NCBI GenBank assembly: GCA_020438395.1
Contig: JAGQUR010000029.1
Coordinates: 1-62,468 of the forward strand
Source of the DNA: Solirubrobacterales bacterium
GTDB taxonomy: Bacteria; Actinomycetota; Thermoleophilia; Solirubrobacterales; 70-9
Direction: 5' to 3'
Length of the DNA: 62,468 nucleotides
Of the stretch, positions 19,333-30,459 are shown in pieces. Within the stretch, counting starts at the first letter, position 1. Every line of letters starts with the position of its first letter. Below the pieces are notes generated by a model. It ran no database searches. It worked only from the letters and a program-made list of their open reading frames with translations, and was not told the origin of the DNA. The position numbers and the translations under genes were made by a program.

Positions 19333-19764
19333 TCAACGAGCGAAGAGGCAGTTGACCTTCATCGTGTAGCCCACGTCGGGACCGTCGTCGCTTCTAACCG
19401 TGAACCGATACCCCTGGGGAGCCTTCCATTTGTTTGACACGGCGCTTCGGTTGACTTCGAAGGCCGTTTCGCTCAACCCCCCAACGAAAGGATCGATAGC
19501 GGTAGGAGCTTTCGAGGGGCACAAGATGCTCCCTACAGACTCGGTGAATTGCCCATCTCCCGCGACGAGATCTTCGGACTTGAGTACCAAGGAGCGTCCC
19601 ACGTACATTCCCCCCAAAGCTCTCGCTCCGACGCTTGACTTCTTCAAGTCATCCCTGCCTACCGTGAACTTCCCCGGTAGGGCAACGGCAGTTCCACCGA
19701 TCGCGACGATCAATGCGATCAGTGCGACAACCATCGCCGGCGACGGTCGTGGTATTCCCCTCAT
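19333..19764 (-). CDS. Short exported protein with RPSPAMVVALIAL-type leader
   Basis: 143 residues. The N-terminus RGIPRPSPAMVVALIALIVA followed by IGGTAVALPG is a hydrophobic signal/anchor of a type I know as common in Thermoleophilia secreted proteins; the rest is a small beta-rich domain with two Cys (SILCPSK and VNCLFAR). Function unknown. Shine-Dalgarno AAGGAGG precedes the ATG. It lies 21 bases downstream of the secreted Ig-like gene on the same strand, so it is probably the third gene of the sigma-factor operon (23975 to 19333). Confidence 0.78.
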   Translation of the reverse strand: MRGIPRPSPAMVVALIALIVAIGGTAVALPGKFTVGRDDLKKSSVGARALGGMYVGRSLVLKSEDLVAGDGQFTESVGSILCPSKAPTAIDPFVGGLSETAFEVNRSAVSNKWKAPQGYRFTVRSDDGPDVGYTMKVNCLFAR

Positions 19765-19785: not shown

Positions 19786-22635
19786 TCAGTCCTTGGGGTA
19801 CACAATGACCGATCTTGGCTTCGATGTCGAGGGCAGATATGGCCATCCGGCCTCTGGCAGGGCGGAAGCCCGGAAGACGATGCGCTGTGCGGACGCGATG
19901 GTGCGGAACCGGTAGCCGTACCGGAACCTCCCACGACGATCGGTACGAAGCACCTCGACCGGGCGCCATTTCCTCCTGGACGGGTCGAAGTACTGAATCG
20001 CCACGAGCTTGCCCCTTGCCGGGGGTAGCGCCCCGCTGAATCCGACCGAACCCCTCATTCGTACCACGCCGCCGTTGTAGAGCTTTCGCGGCTTGATCCG
20101 GAAACGGACCCTTCCTTTCACTTTCAGCCTGAGCATGTTGCTCGAAACCGGGGAAAGTCTCCGGTTGCCACCGAAATGAACCTCCACTCCTCTAGATGGC
20201 CCGCCGGTCAGCCTCGTCCGATATCTGCCGTCGCCGTCAGTGGTGATTTGCCGGGTTACGGTGCCGCGGCGGGATCCCGCCATGAACGTCTCGACCACCT
20301 CGACCGTCTGATTTGCCAGGGCCACACCTCCACTCGTGAGCCTGCCATCGACAAACTGCCTCGCTCCATATTTCCCTCGAACGACCTGCCTGCCCCGGGC
20401 AAGCGAGGCGATCAGACTCGAAGGCTGCTTGACCGGCAGGTTCAAGATCATCGGAGCACCGATCGAGGTTTCGTTACCGGTCGACTGGTTCCCCGCGCGA
20501 TCCCGCACGGTGGCATTGAGTTCGTATGAGCCCTGGGGCAGATCATCTGAAGGCACGCGGGCCAGGTACCGACCTCCGCTCCCGGTGGTCGTGAGCGGAG
20601 TGAATGCCTCGCCGGACCCAGCTCTGCGAATTCCGATCGAAGCGGAAGCCACACCGGAGTCCGTGTCATCGGCAACCATGCTGACCAGTTCAGGGTCCTC
20701 CGGATCCCGGTTCGGATCAAATCGGAGTTCGGGAGGCGTCGTATCGATCCTGACGATGGCCTGTCCCGGGTTCTGGTGGGTATCACCGTCAACCCCCGGC
20801 AGGCCGTCGTTTGCGTTGCCGGCCAGATCTTCGGCCCAGTACCTGATCCGGTTCACTCCTTCGGTTGCGACGGCGAATGTCGCAATCGCTCCGGGAGCCT
20901 CATAGGGCGCATAATTGTCGGCGGCAATGACTGTTTTCGGCTCGCCGTCGTCGCCTGCCTCGGGCAACATTCCGGAGAGTTGGTCAACCGCATGGACGGT
21001 TACCGTCACCGGGCGGTTGACCCAGTCATTCGGGATCCCGGTGATCGAGGAACTGGGAGGTGTGCGGTCGACCTGAACGACTGTGCTGCCTGGCTCGAGC
21101 GAAGACTTGCGTGCTCCCGAAACCGCCGCTGCGGTGATCCAGTGGCTTCCTTCGCTCAGGCCGCCAATCGATCCGGTCCGAAGGTCTGCCCCTCCTGACA
21201 GAGTTATTTCGGGGGCGAGACAGACCCCTGAGCTGCATGGCTCGGCGGGTCCTCCGCTGGAGACCCTCATCGCATAGCCACCAATTCCGGAGGGACCGCC
21301 CGGCTCAGCCCTTTCGATTTCCTGCTGGATCGGGAGTTCGTCCCGGGATATCCAGCCCTCGGGTTCAACCGGACTGACGTTTCCCGGTGGGCGATCGTCA
21401 AACCGGAGGATCGTCTCCGCCGACTTGCCCAGGTTGGTAGCCCCATCGACCAGATAGACGATCGCCTTGTACGCCCCCACATCAGGAACGTCGATCGGCC
21501 CGGCGCTCTCGACATCCTGCCCGCCGAAGTAGCCGGCGTCGACCTGCGCACCGGAGTCCAGGTCCTGAAGGACGAAGACCGCACCAATTACCGGGGCAAC
21601 CTGACCCGCCGGAATGCCCCACTTCAAAGTGAATCCGTTCTCCGCTTGCCAATCGGTCCCCTGATCGGATCGCAGGTTGGTCGGCGGGTTGGATGCCTGG
21701 TTGTCGACCAGGACCGTCCGGGTAGCCGTGCATGACTTTGATGCGGCCGACTCAGTGCTCGCATAGTCCCTCGCGCAGAGTCGAATCTGGTTGACCCCCT
21801 CCTGGAAGGGAGCTGCCGCGGTGTCGAGCGTTCGGCTGGCCGAGTAACTCAGGGGACATGGCGAGAAGCGCGTCGAATAGTTGCCCTTGTCCCCTGGACA
21901 TACTGGAGCGGTGAAATCAACCCGGAGCCCGTTTACCTCGGCCCATGTCGCCGCGACTCCCGAGCCTTGATCCGATGCCTCGATCGTGATCGAGGCGCTG
22001 CCGCGGTGGTAGTTCGATCCGCCGGCCCAGTTCCACAACGTCCCCGAAGCCGCCGCGGTCGGGGCCGAGGTGTCATTCACCGTGAATTCGACGTCTGTGA
22101 CTTCAATGAATGCCTTGCCGGAGGTTGACTGGTTCTCACAAGACGAGGTCGACATGCAGCGGACTCTGGCGATCACCATTTGTTGCGGGTTAGCTGCACC
22201 TGACCACGCAGCTAGTTGTTCACCTCCATCATGGGCCACACCGGCGCCTAGATCCGTGATTGAACTGCCATTGAAGCCAACTACCTCCGTCCTAATCTGG
22301 TTCTTGTCATTGAGCCGAGCGGCCACTTTCGTACCAACAACCTCGGTGCCCAGTGGAGCGGTCCAGGTGAACTGCCCGCCCTCCCCAAAGGCCAGATCGG
22401 TTCCGCTTCTGTCCTGATAGATCCCGAGCTTTCCCAATCCCGCCGTCAAACAACCGCTGACCGAGTCGAAGTGGGAACTTCCATTAATTGCTGAATAGGT
22501 GCCCTGAAAGTCCAGGTGCTGAGCTCCCTCGCATTGCCGCATCGTGTAGGTCCCGGCCTGCGCCGGCACCAACCAGCAAAGCCCAACCGCGATGGCACCG
22601 ATCAGCACGATCGCCAGTTTCTGAAATCCGTTCAT
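19786..22635 (-). CDS. Large secreted Ig-like repeat protein
   Basis: 949 residues with a signal peptide (hydrophobic 6-24, likely cleavage after VPAQA). The mature part begins TYTMRQCEGAQHL and contains several beta-sandwich segments: a lectin/adhesin-like first domain of about 170 residues, then repeated Ig-like or Big-type modules marked by DTSAP, VDNQASNPP, VDRTPPSSSI and IDTTPPELRFD, each followed by a GSGVA/LSG-like loop and a C-x-RD/AEDLAGN strand. The C-terminal 200 residues are very basic (GRVRFRIKPRKLYNGGVVRM). No sortase motif or membrane anchor is visible. Its ATG overlaps the stop of the sigma-factor gene (ATGA). Role: surface or matrix protein, inferred. Confidence 0.85.
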   Translation of the reverse strand: MNGFQKLAIVLIGAIAVGLCWLVPAQAGTYTMRQCEGAQHLDFQGTYSAINGSSHFDSVSGCLTAGLGKLGIYQDRSGTDLAFGEGGQFTWTAPLGTEVVGTKVAARLNDKNQIRTEVVGFNGSSITDLGAGVAHDGGEQLAAWSGAANPQQMVIARVRCMSTSSCENQSTSGKAFIEVTDVEFTVNDTSAPTAAASGTLWNWAGGSNYHRGSASITIEASDQGSGVAATWAEVNGLRVDFTAPVCPGDKGNYSTRFSPCPLSYSASRTLDTAAAPFQEGVNQIRLCARDYASTESAASKSCTATRTVLVDNQASNPPTNLRSDQGTDWQAENGFTLKWGIPAGQVAPVIGAVFVLQDLDSGAQVDAGYFGGQDVESAGPIDVPDVGAYKAIVYLVDGATNLGKSAETILRFDDRPPGNVSPVEPEGWISRDELPIQQEIERAEPGGPSGIGGYAMRVSSGGPAEPCSSGVCLAPEITLSGGADLRTGSIGGLSEGSHWITAAAVSGARKSSLEPGSTVVQVDRTPPSSSITGIPNDWVNRPVTVTVHAVDQLSGMLPEAGDDGEPKTVIAADNYAPYEAPGAIATFAVATEGVNRIRYWAEDLAGNANDGLPGVDGDTHQNPGQAIVRIDTTPPELRFDPNRDPEDPELVSMVADDTDSGVASASIGIRRAGSGEAFTPLTTTGSGGRYLARVPSDDLPQGSYELNATVRDRAGNQSTGNETSIGAPMILNLPVKQPSSLIASLARGRQVVRGKYGARQFVDGRLTSGGVALANQTVEVVETFMAGSRRGTVTRQITTDGDGRYRTRLTGGPSRGVEVHFGGNRRLSPVSSNMLRLKVKGRVRFRIKPRKLYNGGVVRMRGSVGFSGALPPARGKLVAIQYFDPSRRKWRPVEVLRTDRRGRFRYGYRFRTIASAQRIVFRASALPEAGWPYLPSTSKPRSVIVYPKD

Positions 22636-23975
22636 GGTGCGAACTCCCCTCCTCCGTTTCCGACAGGGACTGAGCTGGAAGCTGGTTGAGGGGGAGGAGA
22701 AGCGGCGGGCGCAGGACTTCCGGCCGCCTCGGGTGTGAACTCGGTCTCGGTCGGAGTCGGCGGAGGGGCAACCGATGTGACGACCGGTGCTTCGCTCACC
22801 GGTTCCGGACTTGAAGGCGCGGGTGGATCTGGCGCGACAGTCGTGTCATTCGAATCAGCTGACTGGCCCTGGGTTACCGGAGCCGGTTCCGGTTCCGGCT
22901 CGACGAAGGCCATCGGCACGCGCCGTGGTTCGCGGTCTGCGGCTACCCGCTGCTTTGCGGCAGGCTTCTCGTCCCGGTGAAGCAGATCCGCGGCGGGCAA
23001 CACCCCGGTCGCGGCGCAGACCGCAGCAGTACCGGCAGTACCGGCACAGATGGCCGCAAGCTTTGCGAGCGCGGCCATGCCGGCGCCGCGAGAGCCCCCG
23101 GAGGCCATCACACCCTGGAGGCCTGATTCCGATCCCCTTCCGAGTCCGAAGAACCGGGTCTGCAGATCGATTGCCAATTCCTGGGCCCGTTCCCATATGC
23201 CTCGCCCGGCCGGAACCAAGGGAGCCAGTGCAGCAGCGGCCTTTGGCGCAGCTCGATAAGCCCGAAGCGTCGACCGGCAATGGCCGCAAACGGCGAGATG
23301 GGCCTCGAGTTCGGTGACTTGCTTGCCGGTCAGCTCTCCGTCGCAACTGGCCGAAAGCAGCGGTTCGAATCCCGGACAAAGTTCGCCCGATTCACTGTCG
23401 TGGAATGCGCTGCGAAACCTTGCCCTGCCTTCGGAGAGACACCGATTCACCTTGGTTCGGGTCCAGTCGTTCATCGACCCGATTTCCTCGTAGGAGAAGC
23501 CTTCAGCCAGTTGGGTCAGAGCCTTGAGCTCGGCCGGTTTGAGTTGTGCCAGGGCTTCCTTGCTTCGGGCGACTCGCTCTCGCCTGACCGTCAGGTCATC
23601 AGGACCGTCACCGGCCGACGGGATTAGCTGCACCCAGTCTTCGTCGAGGTGCTCATCCTCATGTGATTGGCCAGGCCGGGCGAGGGTTCGCTCTCTGGTC
23701 TTTCGGATGGCAAGCGCCTCGTGCTTGATCACCGTGCGGGTCCAGGGGAGTAGCTGCCTCAGGTCCATGGTGGGTGCCTTGGAGAGGAGGATCTCGATGC
23801 CGCGTTGATACGCATCCTCGGCATCCTCCGCGCAGATCGAAAACCGCCTGGCGGTCCACCTCAGAGGTCGGTCGTGATTCCTGATCAACTCGACCGCGAC
23901 CCGCTTCCGTGCCGCTTCATCCGGCCTGCTACCGGAGGCGTCCATCTCCTTGTCTTGAACCGCAACTCCCCTCAT
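22632..23975 (-). CDS. ECF-type sigma factor fused to zinc-finger anti-sigma-like and membrane region
   Basis: 447 residues in four parts. (1) Residues about 20-190: sigma-70 region 2 (RWTARRFSICAEDAEDAYQR) and region 4 (ALTQLAEGFSYEEIGSMNDW). (2) About 200-240: a zinc-binding anti-sigma-like motif H226-x3-C230-x2-C233 in ELEAHLAVCGHC. (3) A hydrophobic helix at about 299-326. (4) A Pro/Glu/Ser-rich tail to the end, which would be extracytoplasmic. The sigma factor and its inhibitor thus appear joined in one membrane protein. I prefer ATG 23975 (GGTGGGGGA upstream) over GTG 23987. It is coupled to the secreted gene downstream, a likely regulon member. Confidence 0.85.
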   Translation of the reverse strand: MRGVAVQDKEMDASGSRPDEAARKRVAVELIRNHDRPLRWTARRFSICAEDAEDAYQRGIEILLSKAPTMDLRQLLPWTRTVIKHEALAIRKTRERTLARPGQSHEDEHLDEDWVQLIPSAGDGPDDLTVRRERVARSKEALAQLKPAELKALTQLAEGFSYEEIGSMNDWTRTKVNRCLSEGRARFRSAFHDSESGELCPGFEPLLSASCDGELTGKQVTELEAHLAVCGHCRSTLRAYRAAPKAAAALAPLVPAGRGIWERAQELAIDLQTRFFGLGRGSESGLQGVMASGGSRGAGMAALAKLAAICAGTAGTAAVCAATGVLPAADLLHRDEKPAAKQRVAADREPRRVPMAFVEPEPEPAPVTQGQSADSNDTTVAPDPPAPSSPEPVSEAPVVTSVAPPPTPTETEFTPEAAGSPAPAASPPPQPASSSVPVGNGGGEFAP

Positions 23976-24140
23976 GGGGTCCCCCACCTCTCAGACGGTC
24001 TGGTCTTTGTCCTATCCGCAAGCAACTCGGGATGCCAGTCGCCGGATCGGGACCACCGGGAGCCATCCCCCACAGTTTCAGCCCGTTGAAAAGTGTCCAT
24101 TTGCAGCGCTAAGGGACCGGTCCGCGAAGTCTCTCCCCCC

Positions 24141-24201
24141 TTGCGGAGGTCGCTTTTCCCGCAATTTGCGGAGTTATTGGAAATCAATGCAAATTGCATT
24201 G
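24141..24201. promoter_or_regulatory. Cluster of GCAA-N-TTGC palindromes in the divergent control region
   Basis: In the AT-rich interval between the sigma-factor gene and the Sm-like gene, CCGCAA-T-TTGCGG (24159-24171) and CAATGCAA-A-TTGCATTG (24185-24201) are perfect odd-centred palindromes with the same GCAA-N-TTGC core. TTGCGGAG also occurs as a direct repeat at 24141 and 24166. This is a strong candidate for binding sites of a dimeric regulator. The rest of 23976-24261 shows only a weak hairpin (TTCCG/CGGAA near 24220-24235). Confidence 0.55.
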
Positions 24202-25789: not shown

Positions 25790-26209
25790 TCAGCCGGTCG
25801 GTTTCCAGACCTTCAGGTCCGAGACGGTTGCGAGCTGGTCGAAGTCACGGTCCTTGTGGAGCAGTCTTGCCTCGTGCTGAATGCAAAGCGATGCGACCAG
25901 AAGGTCGACTGATCCCTTTACGGTCACGCCGCTTTTCCGGGCTCGCCGGTAAAGGGCCGCGGCCTGGATGTGATCTCCGGGTCCGCTCACTTCCAATTGG
26001 GGAAATGAGATCAGGAACCCCATTGCGAGATTCGCGTCCTTCTCCGATCGGAACCCTCGGAGGATCTCAGTCAGGCAAAGGTCGACGATCCCGACTGGTT
26101 CTTCCGTTGCGATCAGGTCTCGTAGAGCGCGCTCCTCCGGGCTGTCGACCGCATTGAAGTGGTCGATCCAGACACTGCTGTCCACGACGATCAATCGGCC
26201 CGGCGCCAT
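25790..26209 (-). CDS. vapC: PIN-domain ribonuclease toxin (VapC family)
   Basis: 139 residues. Opens with the PIN strand LIVVDSSVWIDHF (first catalytic Asp), then the conserved Glu in CLTEILRGF, the third acidic cluster in KGSVDLLVAS and a late HKDRDFDQLA. VapC toxins cleave tRNA or rRNA when free of their antitoxin. The ATG at 26209 overlaps the antitoxin gene by 19 bases, the usual coupled arrangement. Acidic residues look intact, so it is probably active. Confidence 0.92.
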   Translation of the reverse strand: MAPGRLIVVDSSVWIDHFNAVDSPEERALRDLIATEEPVGIVDLCLTEILRGFRSEKDANLAMGFLISFPQLEVSGPGDHIQAAALYRRARKSGVTVKGSVDLLVASLCIQHEARLLHKDRDFDQLATVSDLKVWKPTG

Positions 26210-26385
26210 TCGTCCAGGTCGCCCTCCCACTTGAGCTTCCCACGCAGTTCCAGAATCCCCAGGCGCTTCCTGCGGTTGACGAATTCCCGGAGGGCGAGGT
26301 CGACCGTTTCCTTCATGCTTTTCTCGCCGGCCAGCTGCTGTGCGTCGGCCATCAGTTCCTTGTCGATGACGATGTTCGTCCTCAT
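26191..26385 (-). CDS. vapB: VapB-family antitoxin
   Basis: 64 residues beginning MRTNIVIDKELMADAQQLAG, the typical beta strand plus helix of VapB proteins (MRTNI-D-L-L), followed by ETVDLALREFVNRRKR and a C-terminal toxin-binding end rich in Trp and acidic residues (LKWEGDLDEWRRAD). It would bind VapC and repress the operon. ATG 26385 is chosen because TATCGT (26393-26398, minus strand) sits 7 bases upstream; ATG 26391 is only 1 base from it. Confidence 0.9.
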   Translation of the reverse strand: MRTNIVIDKELMADAQQLAGEKSMKETVDLALREFVNRRKRLGILELRGKLKWEGDLDEWRRAD

Positions 26386-26527
26386 ACACATCACGATACA
26401 CATTGGCCGTCCTGTCCTCAAGTGGCTGGTTCACTCATGGTTGAAGGGACCGGAAGGGCAGGTTCGCCCCCTTGTCGGGCTGCCGTTTCGGGCGGCTGTT
26501 TCCGCAAATGCCGGGTTTTTTGGGGTG

Positions 26528-27228: not shown

Positions 27229-28854
27229 TCAGGAATCGCTCTTGGCCTGGACCCGGGCCTGCTGGGCGTTGACGTTCCTGGTCATCTTTCCTGAGTGGTT
27301 GCCGGCCGGGTCTGTGGCCGTCATCGTCAGCCGGTAGCGCCCTGCCCTGAGCCGGAACCTGCCGAGCTTGATCACGTTTGCGCCCTGCTTGCCCTTGCGG
27401 GTGATCTTCACCACCTTGCGCTTGCCCTTCTTGCGGATCGGGGTGAAACGGACCTTCACCGTGGCCTTCTCGGAAAGCCGGAAGCGGAGCGCGCCACCCT
27501 TGCCCTGCCGGAAGCGGAACTTCACCTTGCTCAGCTTGGGCGCTGTGCTGTCCACCGGGCAGGCAGATGGCATCGTCGCGCAGGTCGGCTGGAACTCGTA
27601 GGCGCCCTGATCCGGCAGCGAGGAACCGTCGCCGTCACCGTCACGGGGGCGGGGATCACCGGCGAAGTCCGTGGTCAGGGTCGAAGCGGGATTGCCGGCA
27701 TCGATCGAAGGGGAACCGGGCAACAGATTGAAGTCACCGCTGCCGGCGAACATCGGGTCCTGGTTGATGTTGGTCGGGCTGCTCACATTGACTGTGCCGG
27801 CGGAACCGGCCGCCGCGACCGGCGCAAAGTTGGAGTTGCCGATGTTGAGCAATGCCTTGGGGAAGCCCGGTCCGATCGGCACCAGCAGGTCCCAGGTGCT
27901 GTCATAGCCGCGAATGATCGAGCTGTCGATGTTGACGATCCCGTTGCCGGCGGTGGTCGAGCTGGGAATCTGGATGTCAAGCGCCGAATAGGGGGAAGGA
28001 CCCTCATTCACGAAGGTGGAGAAACGGGCGTTGATCACCGTGTTCTTCGGCTTGCCAGGGGTCGGGGCGACCGACAGGGCCTCACCACCAGTCGCCGAGA
28101 AGACCGAGTTCTCGATATCGATCGAGCCGCCCGAACCGGCCCAGGCGCCAGTGAAGGTGGTGTCTGCAACGATGCTCGACCGGATCTTGAACCCGGTGTC
28201 CTGGTCATCGGCGACGAAGGCGTAGTTAGCCCCGGTGACCGTGGAATTGATGACCGTCGTCGTACCCGGGACAGCGCCGTTGGTCTGCAGCGCCCAGTCC
28301 AGCTTCGACCCCTCGGCCGCGTAGAAAAGGCAGTCGGTGAACTTGTTGTCCCCCAGGAGCGAATTGAAGCCCGAAGACTCCGAGTTACGGATTTCCACAT
28401 TTACCCGCGTGAATTTGGAGTCCCGGAGCTGGCCGGCAGACCCATTACCACCATCATCGGGGAAGGAGGCCGGCACCACGACCGTCAGGTCGGACATGTC
28501 GGTGCCCGGCCGGTCGTCGGTCCGCAGGACATAGCTGTTCGTGGTCGCCGACGAAGTGAGTCTGGTCTTGTCGGCGCCGGCGCCCGTCACCTGAAGCGGG
28601 TCGGTGCCCTGGGCCACGAACGAGCCTGTCGCCGTGAGAGTCCCCTCGTCGATCATCACCTTGTCGGCGGTTCCGTCGCTGCCGTCGTCGGTCATCGCCG
28701 CGTTGAGGTCGGCCCGAGCCTGATTGGTGCCGTTGTCCGGGCAGCCGGCGAAGAAACCCGGTACGCAGAAAGTGGTGGCCGACGCCGGCGCGGCGCAGAC
28801 CAGAAGAAGCGAGACGGCTGCCCCGGCGGCAATTGCGTGCCTGATTGCCTTCAA
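27229..28854 (-). CDS. Secreted beta-helix protein with basic C-terminal domain
   Basis: 541 residues. Signal peptide (hydrophobic 8-22, cleavage likely after APASA), mature start TTFCVPGFFAGCP. The central 350 residues have the irregular short-strand pattern of a right-handed parallel beta helix, ending in a choice-of-anchor-like closing motif (SPSIDAGNP, GDPRPRDGDGDG, DQGAYEFQPTC). The last 110 residues form a strongly basic Ig-like domain (LSKVKFRFRQGKGGALRFRL, LRAGRYRLTMTATDPAGN). TTG start with GGGGGA upstream. Close paralogue of the preceding gene, 9 bases away. Role: surface polysaccharide binding or lyase-like activity, inferred. Confidence 0.82.
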   Translation of the reverse strand: MKAIRHAIAAGAAVSLLLVCAAPASATTFCVPGFFAGCPDNGTNQARADLNAAMTDDGSDGTADKVMIDEGTLTATGSFVAQGTDPLQVTGAGADKTRLTSSATTNSYVLRTDDRPGTDMSDLTVVVPASFPDDGGNGSAGQLRDSKFTRVNVEIRNSESSGFNSLLGDNKFTDCLFYAAEGSKLDWALQTNGAVPGTTTVINSTVTGANYAFVADDQDTGFKIRSSIVADTTFTGAWAGSGGSIDIENSVFSATGGEALSVAPTPGKPKNTVINARFSTFVNEGPSPYSALDIQIPSSTTAGNGIVNIDSSIIRGYDSTWDLLVPIGPGFPKALLNIGNSNFAPVAAAGSAGTVNVSSPTNINQDPMFAGSGDFNLLPGSPSIDAGNPASTLTTDFAGDPRPRDGDGDGSSLPDQGAYEFQPTCATMPSACPVDSTAPKLSKVKFRFRQGKGGALRFRLSEKATVKVRFTPIRKKGKRKVVKITRKGKQGANVIKLGRFRLRAGRYRLTMTATDPAGNHSGKMTRNVNAQQARVQAKSDS

Positions 28855-28863
28855 TTTTTCCCC

Positions 28864-30459
28864 CTAGACCCTGACCCGAACCTTCCGGGTGACGGTTTTC
28901 GACTTGTTGCCCGCCTTGTCGGTGGCGGTGATGGTCAGTTTGTAGCGGCCGGAACCCAGTTTCCTCTTTCCGATCTTCAGCGTCAAGTTGCCGGCCTTTG
29001 CCTTGCGGGTCAGCTTCACCTTCTTGCGCTTCGGCTTGGACTTCTTCGGGACCGGGGTGAAGGTGACCCTGACCGTGGAAGCCTCGGAAAGACGAAGCTT
29101 CAGGGTGCCTCCCTTGCGGCGCTTGAAGCTGAACTTCACCTTGCTGATCTTCGGTGCCGTCTTGTCGGCGGGCGGGCAGAAGGCCGGATCATCGGCGCAG
29201 GTCGGCTGGAACTCGTAGGCGCCCAGATCGCGGACCGCCACGCCATCCGCATTCCCGTCAACCGGCCGGAACTTACCGTCGAGATCGGTGTCAGGCAGGC
29301 TTGTGGTCGGATCGCCCTGATCGATCCCGGGCGACCCGGCCGCCAGGTGAAAATCGTCAAATCCAACGAAGTGCGGGACCCCGAAGGGAATGTTCGAATT
29401 GGTGACGAAAGCCTGGCCATTGGTCGTCCCGGCCGAATCAGTGGCGGTGTAGTTGGCGTTCAGGATGACGTTGCCCTTGCTCTGATCGATCGGCGCCTCC
29501 AGGTGCCAGGGACTCGTGAATCCGCTGATGATCGAGTTCTCCAGGGTCAGGTTGATGTTCTGCGTCGGACTGGCGACCGTGTCGACCCAGGCGTGAATCG
29601 CAGGCTGGTTCGGGTCACCAGTTGCGACGACCGTCAGGTGGTTGAGGTTGAGGGTGGTTGGCTTGTTTACAAAGTTGAAAGCCCGGATCGGCGATCCTTC
29701 ACCGCTCTCGATCAGGGAGTTGGTGACCGAGACCAGGGCGCCATCGGAAACCTGAATTGCTGCATCCGCCCCGGTGAAGTGGGCCCGGTTCACGGTGACC
29801 GGGTTCGTGTCCGGACAGTTCCAGACGAGGCCGTATTGGGCGTCGCTCACCTGAATGTCGCTGAATGTGATTCCCCCGGTCAGGCAGTAGCTCTGCTGGT
29901 AGAAGACACCCCCGAAAGAGGCGCCGTTCTGGCCGAAGACCCGGATGTCCTTGAAGGTGCTGCCGCCAGTCGGGTTGTACACGCCGAAGGAGTCCTCGTT
30001 GCGGGTGATCAGGTCCACCGACTCGAAATGGTCGGCCGTTTCCCCTACCGCCGCCCCGACGTCGAAACTGGTCGGAACAACCACCGCCAGATCCTTCACC
30101 GTGATCGTGCGGTTGTTGCCGCCCAGGTTCAGGACATAGGTGCCGCCCGAGGCAGAGCTGGTCAGGAAAGTCTTCTCCCGTCCGGACCCGATGATCTCGA
30201 GGGGGTCGTTGCCGGTCGCCGTGAAACTGTCCGTGGCGGTCAGGGTTCCCGGGGCGATGATCACCTTGTCCGGGTTGCCGTCGGCACCGTAGGCCGAAAG
30301 CGCCGCGTTCAGGTCCGGTTCAGCCTCGTTTATGCCGCTGGCCGGGCAGGCCGCCGAATAGGTCGGTACACAGAAGGTGTTGGCCGAGGCCGGTTGGACG
30401 AAAGCGAGCCAAACCGACAGAACCACCAGAAGAAACGCGAACTTCCCCAAACCCCGCAT
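28864..30459 (-). CDS. Secreted beta-helix protein, paralogue
   Basis: 531 residues with the same plan as its neighbour: signal peptide ending PASA, mature start NTFCVPTYSAACP, a beta-helix body (SPGIDQGDPTTS and DLGAYEFQPTC closing motifs) and a basic Ig-like end (ISKVKFSFKRRKGGTLKLRL, LGSGRYKLTITATDKAGNKS). The two paralogues diverge mainly in the helix body, suggesting different ligands. No catalytic triad is obvious. SD AAGGGGA before ATG 30459. It is the first of the pair and probably co-transcribed with it. Confidence 0.82.
   Translation of the reverse strand: MRGLGKFAFLLVVLSVWLAFVQPASANTFCVPTYSAACPASGINEAEPDLNAALSAYGADGNPDKVIIAPGTLTATDSFTATGNDPLEIIGSGREKTFLTSSASGGTYVLNLGGNNRTITVKDLAVVVPTSFDVGAAVGETADHFESVDLITRNEDSFGVYNPTGGSTFKDIRVFGQNGASFGGVFYQQSYCLTGGITFSDIQVSDAQYGLVWNCPDTNPVTVNRAHFTGADAAIQVSDGALVSVTNSLIESGEGSPIRAFNFVNKPTTLNLNHLTVVATGDPNQPAIHAWVDTVASPTQNINLTLENSIISGFTSPWHLEAPIDQSKGNVILNANYTATDSAGTTNGQAFVTNSNIPFGVPHFVGFDDFHLAAGSPGIDQGDPTTSLPDTDLDGKFRPVDGNADGVAVRDLGAYEFQPTCADDPAFCPPADKTAPKISKVKFSFKRRKGGTLKLRLSEASTVRVTFTPVPKKSKPKRKKVKLTRKAKAGNLTLKIGKRKLGSGRYKLTITATDKAGNKSKTVTRKVRVRV

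What the first reader, a model, noticed from the sequence alone, without database searches (positions are those of the whole stretch)
22632..23975. One-protein transmembrane sigma factor
The protein joins ECF-type sigma regions 2 and 4, a zinc-binding HxxxCxxC anti-sigma-like motif (H226, C230, C233), a membrane helix (about 299-326) and a Pro/Glu/Ser-rich outer tail. Sigma and inhibitor are normally separate genes; sigma factors with fused C-terminal anti-sigma or membrane parts are known but uncommon. This one would need release, for example by proteolysis, to reach the nucleoid, so it could act as a direct outside-to-transcription sensor.
Basis: partly seen in the sequence, partly recalled or inferred. 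Interest (0 to 1): 0.6.

Follow-up and report, generated by a model that had tools for sequence, protein, structure and literature searches.

The report
Membrane-tethered sigma factor with partner
An actinobacterium makes a gene-switch protein (sigma factor) fused to its own inhibitor and a membrane anchor; its outer end carries a short conserved peptide that recurs in other membrane proteins, usually encoded right before a secreted immunoglobulin-like protein, which suggests a modular outside-to-gene signalling system.

Summary
One uninterrupted minus-strand ORF (22632-23975, 447 aa) joins ECF sigma regions 2 and 4, an HxxxCxxC zinc anti-sigma motif (H226/C230/C233, plus invariant C200), a weak Ala/Gly-rich membrane helix and a Pro-rich tail. 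The fusion is shared across Solirubrobacterales and a further family of the class, so it is no sequencing error. The architecture is already known from the actinobacterial groups ECF48/52/53 (e.g. SCO4117), so the headline is not new.

New here: (1) the tail, otherwise unalignable, ends in a conserved peptide: 40 of 63 collected homologues end exactly EFxP, 12 more carry a variant. (2) The sigma stop overlaps (ATGA) the start of a secreted, string-of-Ig-domains gene, an arrangement kept in several families. (3) The same C-terminal peptide ends other single-pass proteins (other fused sigmas, and small proteins without sigma domain), mostly encoded just upstream of Ig-like genes; the window's own genome has three such pairs. 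(4) A promoter-like motif recurs before this operon and before an unlinked Ig-like gene.

Best reading: a sigma factor autoinhibited at the membrane and released by proteolysis, with the C-terminal peptide as docking (or processing) signal coupled to the Ig-like partner. Docking, proteolysis and regulon are inferred.

The parts
22632..23975 (-). fused ECF sigma / zinc anti-sigma / membrane helix / Pro-rich tail protein, 447 aa
23697..23888 (-). sigma region 2 (residues 30-93)
   Evidence: Pfam PF04542 26.1 bits; invariant D51 A55 Q57 R58 E61 W78 E86
23388..23603 (-). sigma region 4 with helix-turn-helix (residues 125-196)
   Evidence: TIGR02937 above cut-off; pLDDT above 90
23277..23300 (-). 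HxxxCxxC zinc anti-sigma motif (H226, C230, C233)
   Evidence: zf-HC2 33.8 bits; invariant in 32 homologues
23376..23378 (-). C200, invariant, likely fourth zinc ligand
   Evidence: ligand role inferred
23010..23081 (-). weak Ala/Gly-rich putative membrane helix (residues 299-322)
   Evidence: KD maximum 1.63; helix 298-322 at low pLDDT; family KD median 1.76
22728..22742 (-). internal EFTPE motif (residues 412-416)
22635..22646 (-). conserved C-terminal peptide EFAP (residues 444-447)
19786..22635 (-). secreted chain of Ig/FNIII-like domains, 949 aa, overlapping the sigma stop by ATGA
19333..19764 (-). third gene of the cluster, 143 aa with N-terminal hydrophobic segment, kept in several genus members; no Pfam match
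24110..24140 (-). putative promoter GGGGGGAGAG-N17-CTTA
   Evidence: function inferred
24161..24169 (+). near-palindrome GCAATTTGC, copy 1
24189..24197 (-). near-palindrome GCAATTTGC, copy 2
23972..24100 (-). putative 42-codon leader ORF starting 9 bases after CTTA; its stop overlaps the sigma ATG

Best explanation
This is an ECF sigma factor covalently fused to its own class I zinc anti-sigma domain and tethered by one weak membrane helix (N-terminus inside, tail outside). At rest the zinc domain folds back on sigma regions 2 and 4. The Pro-rich tail crosses the wall and presents a conserved peptide (EFxP at the C-terminus, often with an internal EFxPE copy) that docks onto the Ig-like domains of the secreted protein made from the next, translationally coupled gene. 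A change in that complex (wall damage, ligand binding, loss of partner) exposes the tail to a site-1 protease, then a membrane (M50) protease cuts the Gly/Ala-rich helix and the sigma domain is freed. It probably transcribes its own operon and an unlinked Ig-like gene. Shown: fusion, conservation, gene coupling, peptide motif and its recurrence next to Ig-like genes. Inferred: topology, docking, proteolysis, promoter use.
For: Intact sigma and zinc domains. ATGA coupling to the Ig-like gene in genus and family, in one f4 genome, and in family f5 to a secreted gene with a weak Ig-profile match. 40 of 63 homologues end EFxP and 12 more carry a variant. Three f3 members without an adjacent Ig-like gene, with TAG stops and no overlap, keep it, so it is not just the partner's ribosome-binding site. 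19 of 1560 closed ORFs end with [EQ]FG in the last 8 residues versus about 1.5 expected; most lie directly upstream of an Ig-like gene, including sigma-less single-helix proteins. The own genome has further pairs on C97 (EQFGLP) and C24 (AFGPGP). Partner modelled as a beta-sandwich chain. Two M50 proteases. Promoter motif 14 hits versus 0 reversed controls, five before this operon and three before an orthologous unlinked Ig-like gene. In the similar SCO4117 the sigma part without its tail is active (PMC5826349).
Against: The helix is only marginally hydrophobic and the tail is basic just after it, so the topology rests on function, not on charge. f3 genomes keep the peptide without an adjacent partner, although Ig-like homologues exist elsewhere in most of them. 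Many Ig-like genes have no such neighbour (L186, L197, L200, L206 and others). No complex was modelled. One clade lost the zinc/membrane tail altogether, so the tail is dispensable there. The loci for the motif count were partly chosen because they held the motif or an Ig-like hit, so the enrichment is not an unbiased estimate.
Confidence: 0.5

Rival explanations
1. The C-terminal EFxP peptide is a recognition signal for an extracytoplasmic protease (PDZ-type or tail-specific), or a cap against one; the Ig-like gene is merely a co-regulated neighbour.
For: Position at the very C-terminus; release of the fused sigma IutY involves Prc and RseP (PMC8999054); M50 proteases present; f3 members keep the peptide without an adjacent Ig-like gene.
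Against: The same peptide recurs on sigma-less proteins next to Ig-like genes, which a partner explains more directly; an internal EFxPE copy is also kept; a terminal proline is unusual for PDZ or tail-specific ligands (own knowledge).
Confidence: 0.27
2. The hydrophobic stretch does not span the membrane; the protein is cytosolic and the zinc domain acts as an on-board redox or zinc sensor.
For: Kyte-Doolittle maximum only 1.63 and Ala/Gly/Thr-rich; low model confidence; basic residues follow the helix.
Against: Hydrophobic segment kept at the same place in relatives, up to 2.37; Pro-rich linker-like tail; coupling to a secreted protein; precedent of ECF52 (PMC5826349).
Confidence: 0.13
3. 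The conserved C-terminus only reflects the Shine-Dalgarno sequence and start codon of the overlapping Ig-like gene.
For: In the window GGAGGGGAG lies about 8 bases before the downstream ATG.
Against: f3 homologues ending EF[AG]P with TAG stops, no overlap and no Ig-like gene behind them (L044, L045, L071); internal EFxPE copies; the Phe codon is not part of a ribosome-binding site.
Confidence: 0.02

Closest known systems
ECF52 sigma factors (SCO4117, Streptomyces coelicolor)
   Same: ECF sigma, zinc finger, membrane helix and Pro-rich outer tail in one protein; release by proteolysis proposed; sigma part alone active; Actinobacteria (PMC5826349, PMC8999054)
   Different: No fused carbohydrate-binding domain; instead a C-terminal EFxP peptide and a separate, translationally coupled Ig-like protein
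ECF48 and ECF53 sigma factors
   Same: Fused zinc anti-sigma domain and one or two membrane helices (PMC8999054)
   Different: Group models not available here; the held text mentions no EFxP peptide or Ig-like partner
IutY (ECF243, Pseudomonas putida)
   Same: Sigma fused to its membrane anti-sigma, freed by Prc and RseP (PMC8999054)
   Different: Part of an iron cell-surface signalling system; its signalling context is unlike the Ig-like partner here
Class I zinc anti-sigma domains (zf-HC2)
   Same: HxxxCxxC motif after sigma region 4, invariant
   Different: Covalently attached to its sigma instead of encoded by a separate gene

Membership tests
ECF (group IV) sigma factors | regions 2 and 4 only | tested here: met
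   TIGR02937 43.8 bits above cut-off; fold matches ECF sigma structures, e.g. 9m9e, 8z6g, 6koo; Pfam region 4 alone is sub-threshold
Class I zinc anti-sigma domain | Hx3Cx2C zinc motif | tested here: met
   zf-HC2 33.8 bits, H226/C230/C233 invariant
Class I zinc anti-sigma domain | binds and inhibits the sigma | not testable with these tools
   needs biochemistry; domain modelled confidently but contacts were not measured
ECF52 | sigma + zinc finger + Pro-rich extension in one chain | tested here: met
ECF52 | membrane helix or helices | tested here: inconclusive
   KD maximum 1.63 here, family median 1.76
ECF52 | fused C-terminal carbohydrate-binding domain | tested here: not met
   no domain after the helix in Pfam or NCBIfam; tail has no secondary structure in the model
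ECF52 | sequence membership in the group | not testable with these tools
   ECF group models not held; a profile of this family hit one genome outside the class among 246 phylum genomes at E up to 1e-16
ECF48/ECF53 | sequence membership in the group | not testable with these tools
   group models not held
ECF243 (IutY-like) | iron cell-surface signalling context with a receptor | not tested
   neighbour is an Ig-like secreted protein; no search for receptors was made

The most novel reading that the evidence does not exclude
A general actinobacterial surface-signalling module exists in which a short C-terminal peptide (EFGP-like) on the outer end of single-pass membrane proteins, whether sigma-fused or not, docks a co-encoded secreted Ig-domain protein, so that many sensors share one plug-and-socket.
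Probability: 0.4. Interest if true: 0.75.

Novelty: new variant of a known kind. Interest (0 to 1): 0.5.

Why it matters
The fused architecture was known, but how such proteins sense the outside is open: in ECF52 a fused sugar-binding domain is proposed. Here the sensing part seems to be split off into a coupled secreted protein, with a four-residue peptide as the candidate contact. That gives a small, directly testable handle (last four residues, partner knock-out) on outside-to-transcription signalling, and it predicts a role for many uncharacterised Ig-like surface proteins of this actinobacterial class.

Tried and rejected
Sequencing error or stop between the halves: rejected, continuous in about 30 homologues. 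Shine-Dalgarno artefact for the C-terminal motif: rejected. Homologues on plasmids: none. Sequence relatives in PDB: none useful by phmmer; fold search confirms ECF sigma and Ig-like chains. Three 'sigma-only' homologues (G001, G037, G040) proved to be genes interrupted by insertions, not domain loss; a fourth (G060, L075) breaks off about 17 residues earlier and was not explained. The g2 genomes without a clear orthologue carry a diverged paralogous sigma with the same tail end. Literature search for the motif: nothing relevant. No complex could be modelled with the tools.

Full report
Check of the observation. The ORF lies on the minus strand, 23975 to 22632, 447 aa. NCBIfam TIGR02937 (sigma70-ECF) scores above its cut-off, Pfam finds sigma region 2 and zf-HC2 above their cut-offs and region 4 below it. 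In an alignment of 32 homologues the zinc residues H226, C230, C233 and also C200 are invariant, together with sigma residues such as D51, A55, Q57, R58, E61, W78, E86, Y162, K175 and R178. AlphaFold2 models sigma 2, sigma 4 and the zinc domain with pLDDT above 90, and the rest poorly; Foldseek returns ECF sigma structures, some from sigma/anti-sigma complexes. The membrane helix is real as a conserved hydrophobic segment but weak (maximum KD 1.63; family median 1.76, range 1.27-2.37).

Distribution. A match is found in 51 of 61 genomes (the own one and 60 relatives), mostly one per genome, throughout four families of the order and in a fifth family of the class; at E up to 1e-16 only one genome outside the class has a match in a phylum-wide sample of 246. 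Public relatives are named Solirubrobacterales MAGs. The sigma-domain tree follows taxonomy, and four homologues without zinc/membrane tail form one well-supported clade inside the fused family, most simply one secondary loss. The own genome holds at least two other sigma proteins with long C-terminal fusions.

The partner gene. The sigma stop overlaps the ATG of a 949-aa gene by ATGA. Its product has a signal-like N-terminus and is modelled as a chain of beta-sandwich (Ig/FNIII-like) domains (OmpL47-type domain). The arrangement recurs in the genus and family (L036, L037, L039-L041, L056, L057, L062, L063) and in L065 of family f4; in family f5 the next gene, again usually overlapping by ATGA, is a secreted protein with a weaker match to the Ig profile. 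In f3 the adjacent gene is different, but Ig-like homologues occur elsewhere in most of those genomes.

The C-terminal peptide. The tail is unalignable except at its end. Of 63 non-redundant homologues with closed C-termini, 40 end exactly EFxP, 12 carry a variant in the last 12 residues, 11 none, of which several are degenerate or distant. F445 is the only near-invariant tail position. Three f3 homologues with TAG stops and no Ig-like gene behind them keep EF[AG]P (L044, L045, L071), which argues against a ribosome-binding-site artefact. An internal EFxPE copy lies about 30-45 residues upstream in many.

Recurrence. A DNA pattern for EF[GA]P plus stop in 23 genomes led to further loci in which a protein with this C-terminus sits directly upstream of an Ig-like gene: diverged sigma-zinc-helix proteins (L148-L150, L190, L192), sigma proteins without the zinc motif (L185, L194), and a small single-helix protein without any sigma domain (L187; L215-L217 show similar ends). 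Among 1560 closed ORFs of at least 100 aa in the loci examined, 19 end with [EQ]FG in the last 8 residues against about 1.5 expected from its density elsewhere; the set of loci was partly chosen for the motif or for Ig-like hits, so this is indicative only. Several Ig-like genes have no such neighbour (L186, L197, L200, L206).

Regulation. Upstream regions of 11 genus members share a GGGG[AC]GAG-N-CTTA pair and, in most, two GCAATTTGC near-palindromes. The pattern GGGGGNGAGTTN{12,16}CTTA gives 14 hits in six genus genomes and none with the reversed pattern; five precede this operon, three precede an orthologous unlinked Ig-like gene (own genome: C112), others precede a DUF192-like/response-regulator pair and RadA by eye. 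An ATG lies exactly 9 bases after the CTTA box in all 11; the frame stays open for about 42-67 codons, and in the closest relatives it ends on the sigma ATG. That this sigma uses the promoter is inference; RadA among the targets speaks for a wider promoter class.

Mechanism. Putting this together, the most likely working is autoinhibition by the fused zinc domain, tethering, and release by regulated proteolysis, as proposed for ECF48/52/53 and shown for IutY (PMC8999054, PMC5826349), with the EFxP peptide as docking site of the secreted Ig-like partner or as processing signal. Two M50 proteases are present. The protein works like ECF52 but lacks the fused carbohydrate-binding domain, so it is not filed there. 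No interaction, cleavage or promoter use was shown here.

Literature. Searches of the held library found the ECF52 work and reviews, nothing on the motif with sigma factors and nothing combining fused anti-sigma with Ig-like partners; subscription papers are not covered.

Noticed in passing
G040 (L073 4665-5204 and 14162-14557), G037 (L074 around 7358), G001 (L064, L062, L063): In three related genomes the sigma gene is interrupted at nearly the same spot in the helix-turn-helix codons (residues about 177-193): a roughly 9 kb insert in G040, a serine recombinase ORF starting at the junction in G037, an IS-like element with about 11-base inverted ends in G001.
   Followed up: partly
G020 L052, G021 L053, G028 L054, G035 L055: One clade of the family has lost the zinc/membrane tail of this sigma; no separate zinc anti-sigma gene was seen within 1200 bases downstream.
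   Followed up: partly
window 23972-24100 (-): Putative leaderless 42-codon leader ORF whose stop overlaps the sigma ATG; similar open frames at the same position in the genus.
   Followed up: partly
own genome C97 (L185) and C24 (L187): Two more pairs of a membrane protein ending in an EFGP-like peptide (EQFGLP; AFGPGP) followed by an Ig-like secreted gene.
   Followed up: yes
own genome C38 (L002) and C170 (L003): Other sigma factors fused to long low-complexity C-terminal tails without the EFxP ending.
   Followed up: partly
G018 L194 1170-1901, G028 L191 2274-3023, G066 L198 2640-3389: Small single-helix proteins of 243-249 aa without sigma domain that end in EFGP; in two cases in the same cluster as a sigma/Ig-like pair.
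   Followed up: partly
window 27229-28854 and 28864-30459 (-): Two tandem secreted beta-helix-like proteins (541 and 531 aa) with similar C-terminal Ig-like ends.
   Followed up: no
window 25790-26434 (-): ORF that looks like a PIN-domain (VapC-type) toxin by eye; not searched.
   Followed up: no
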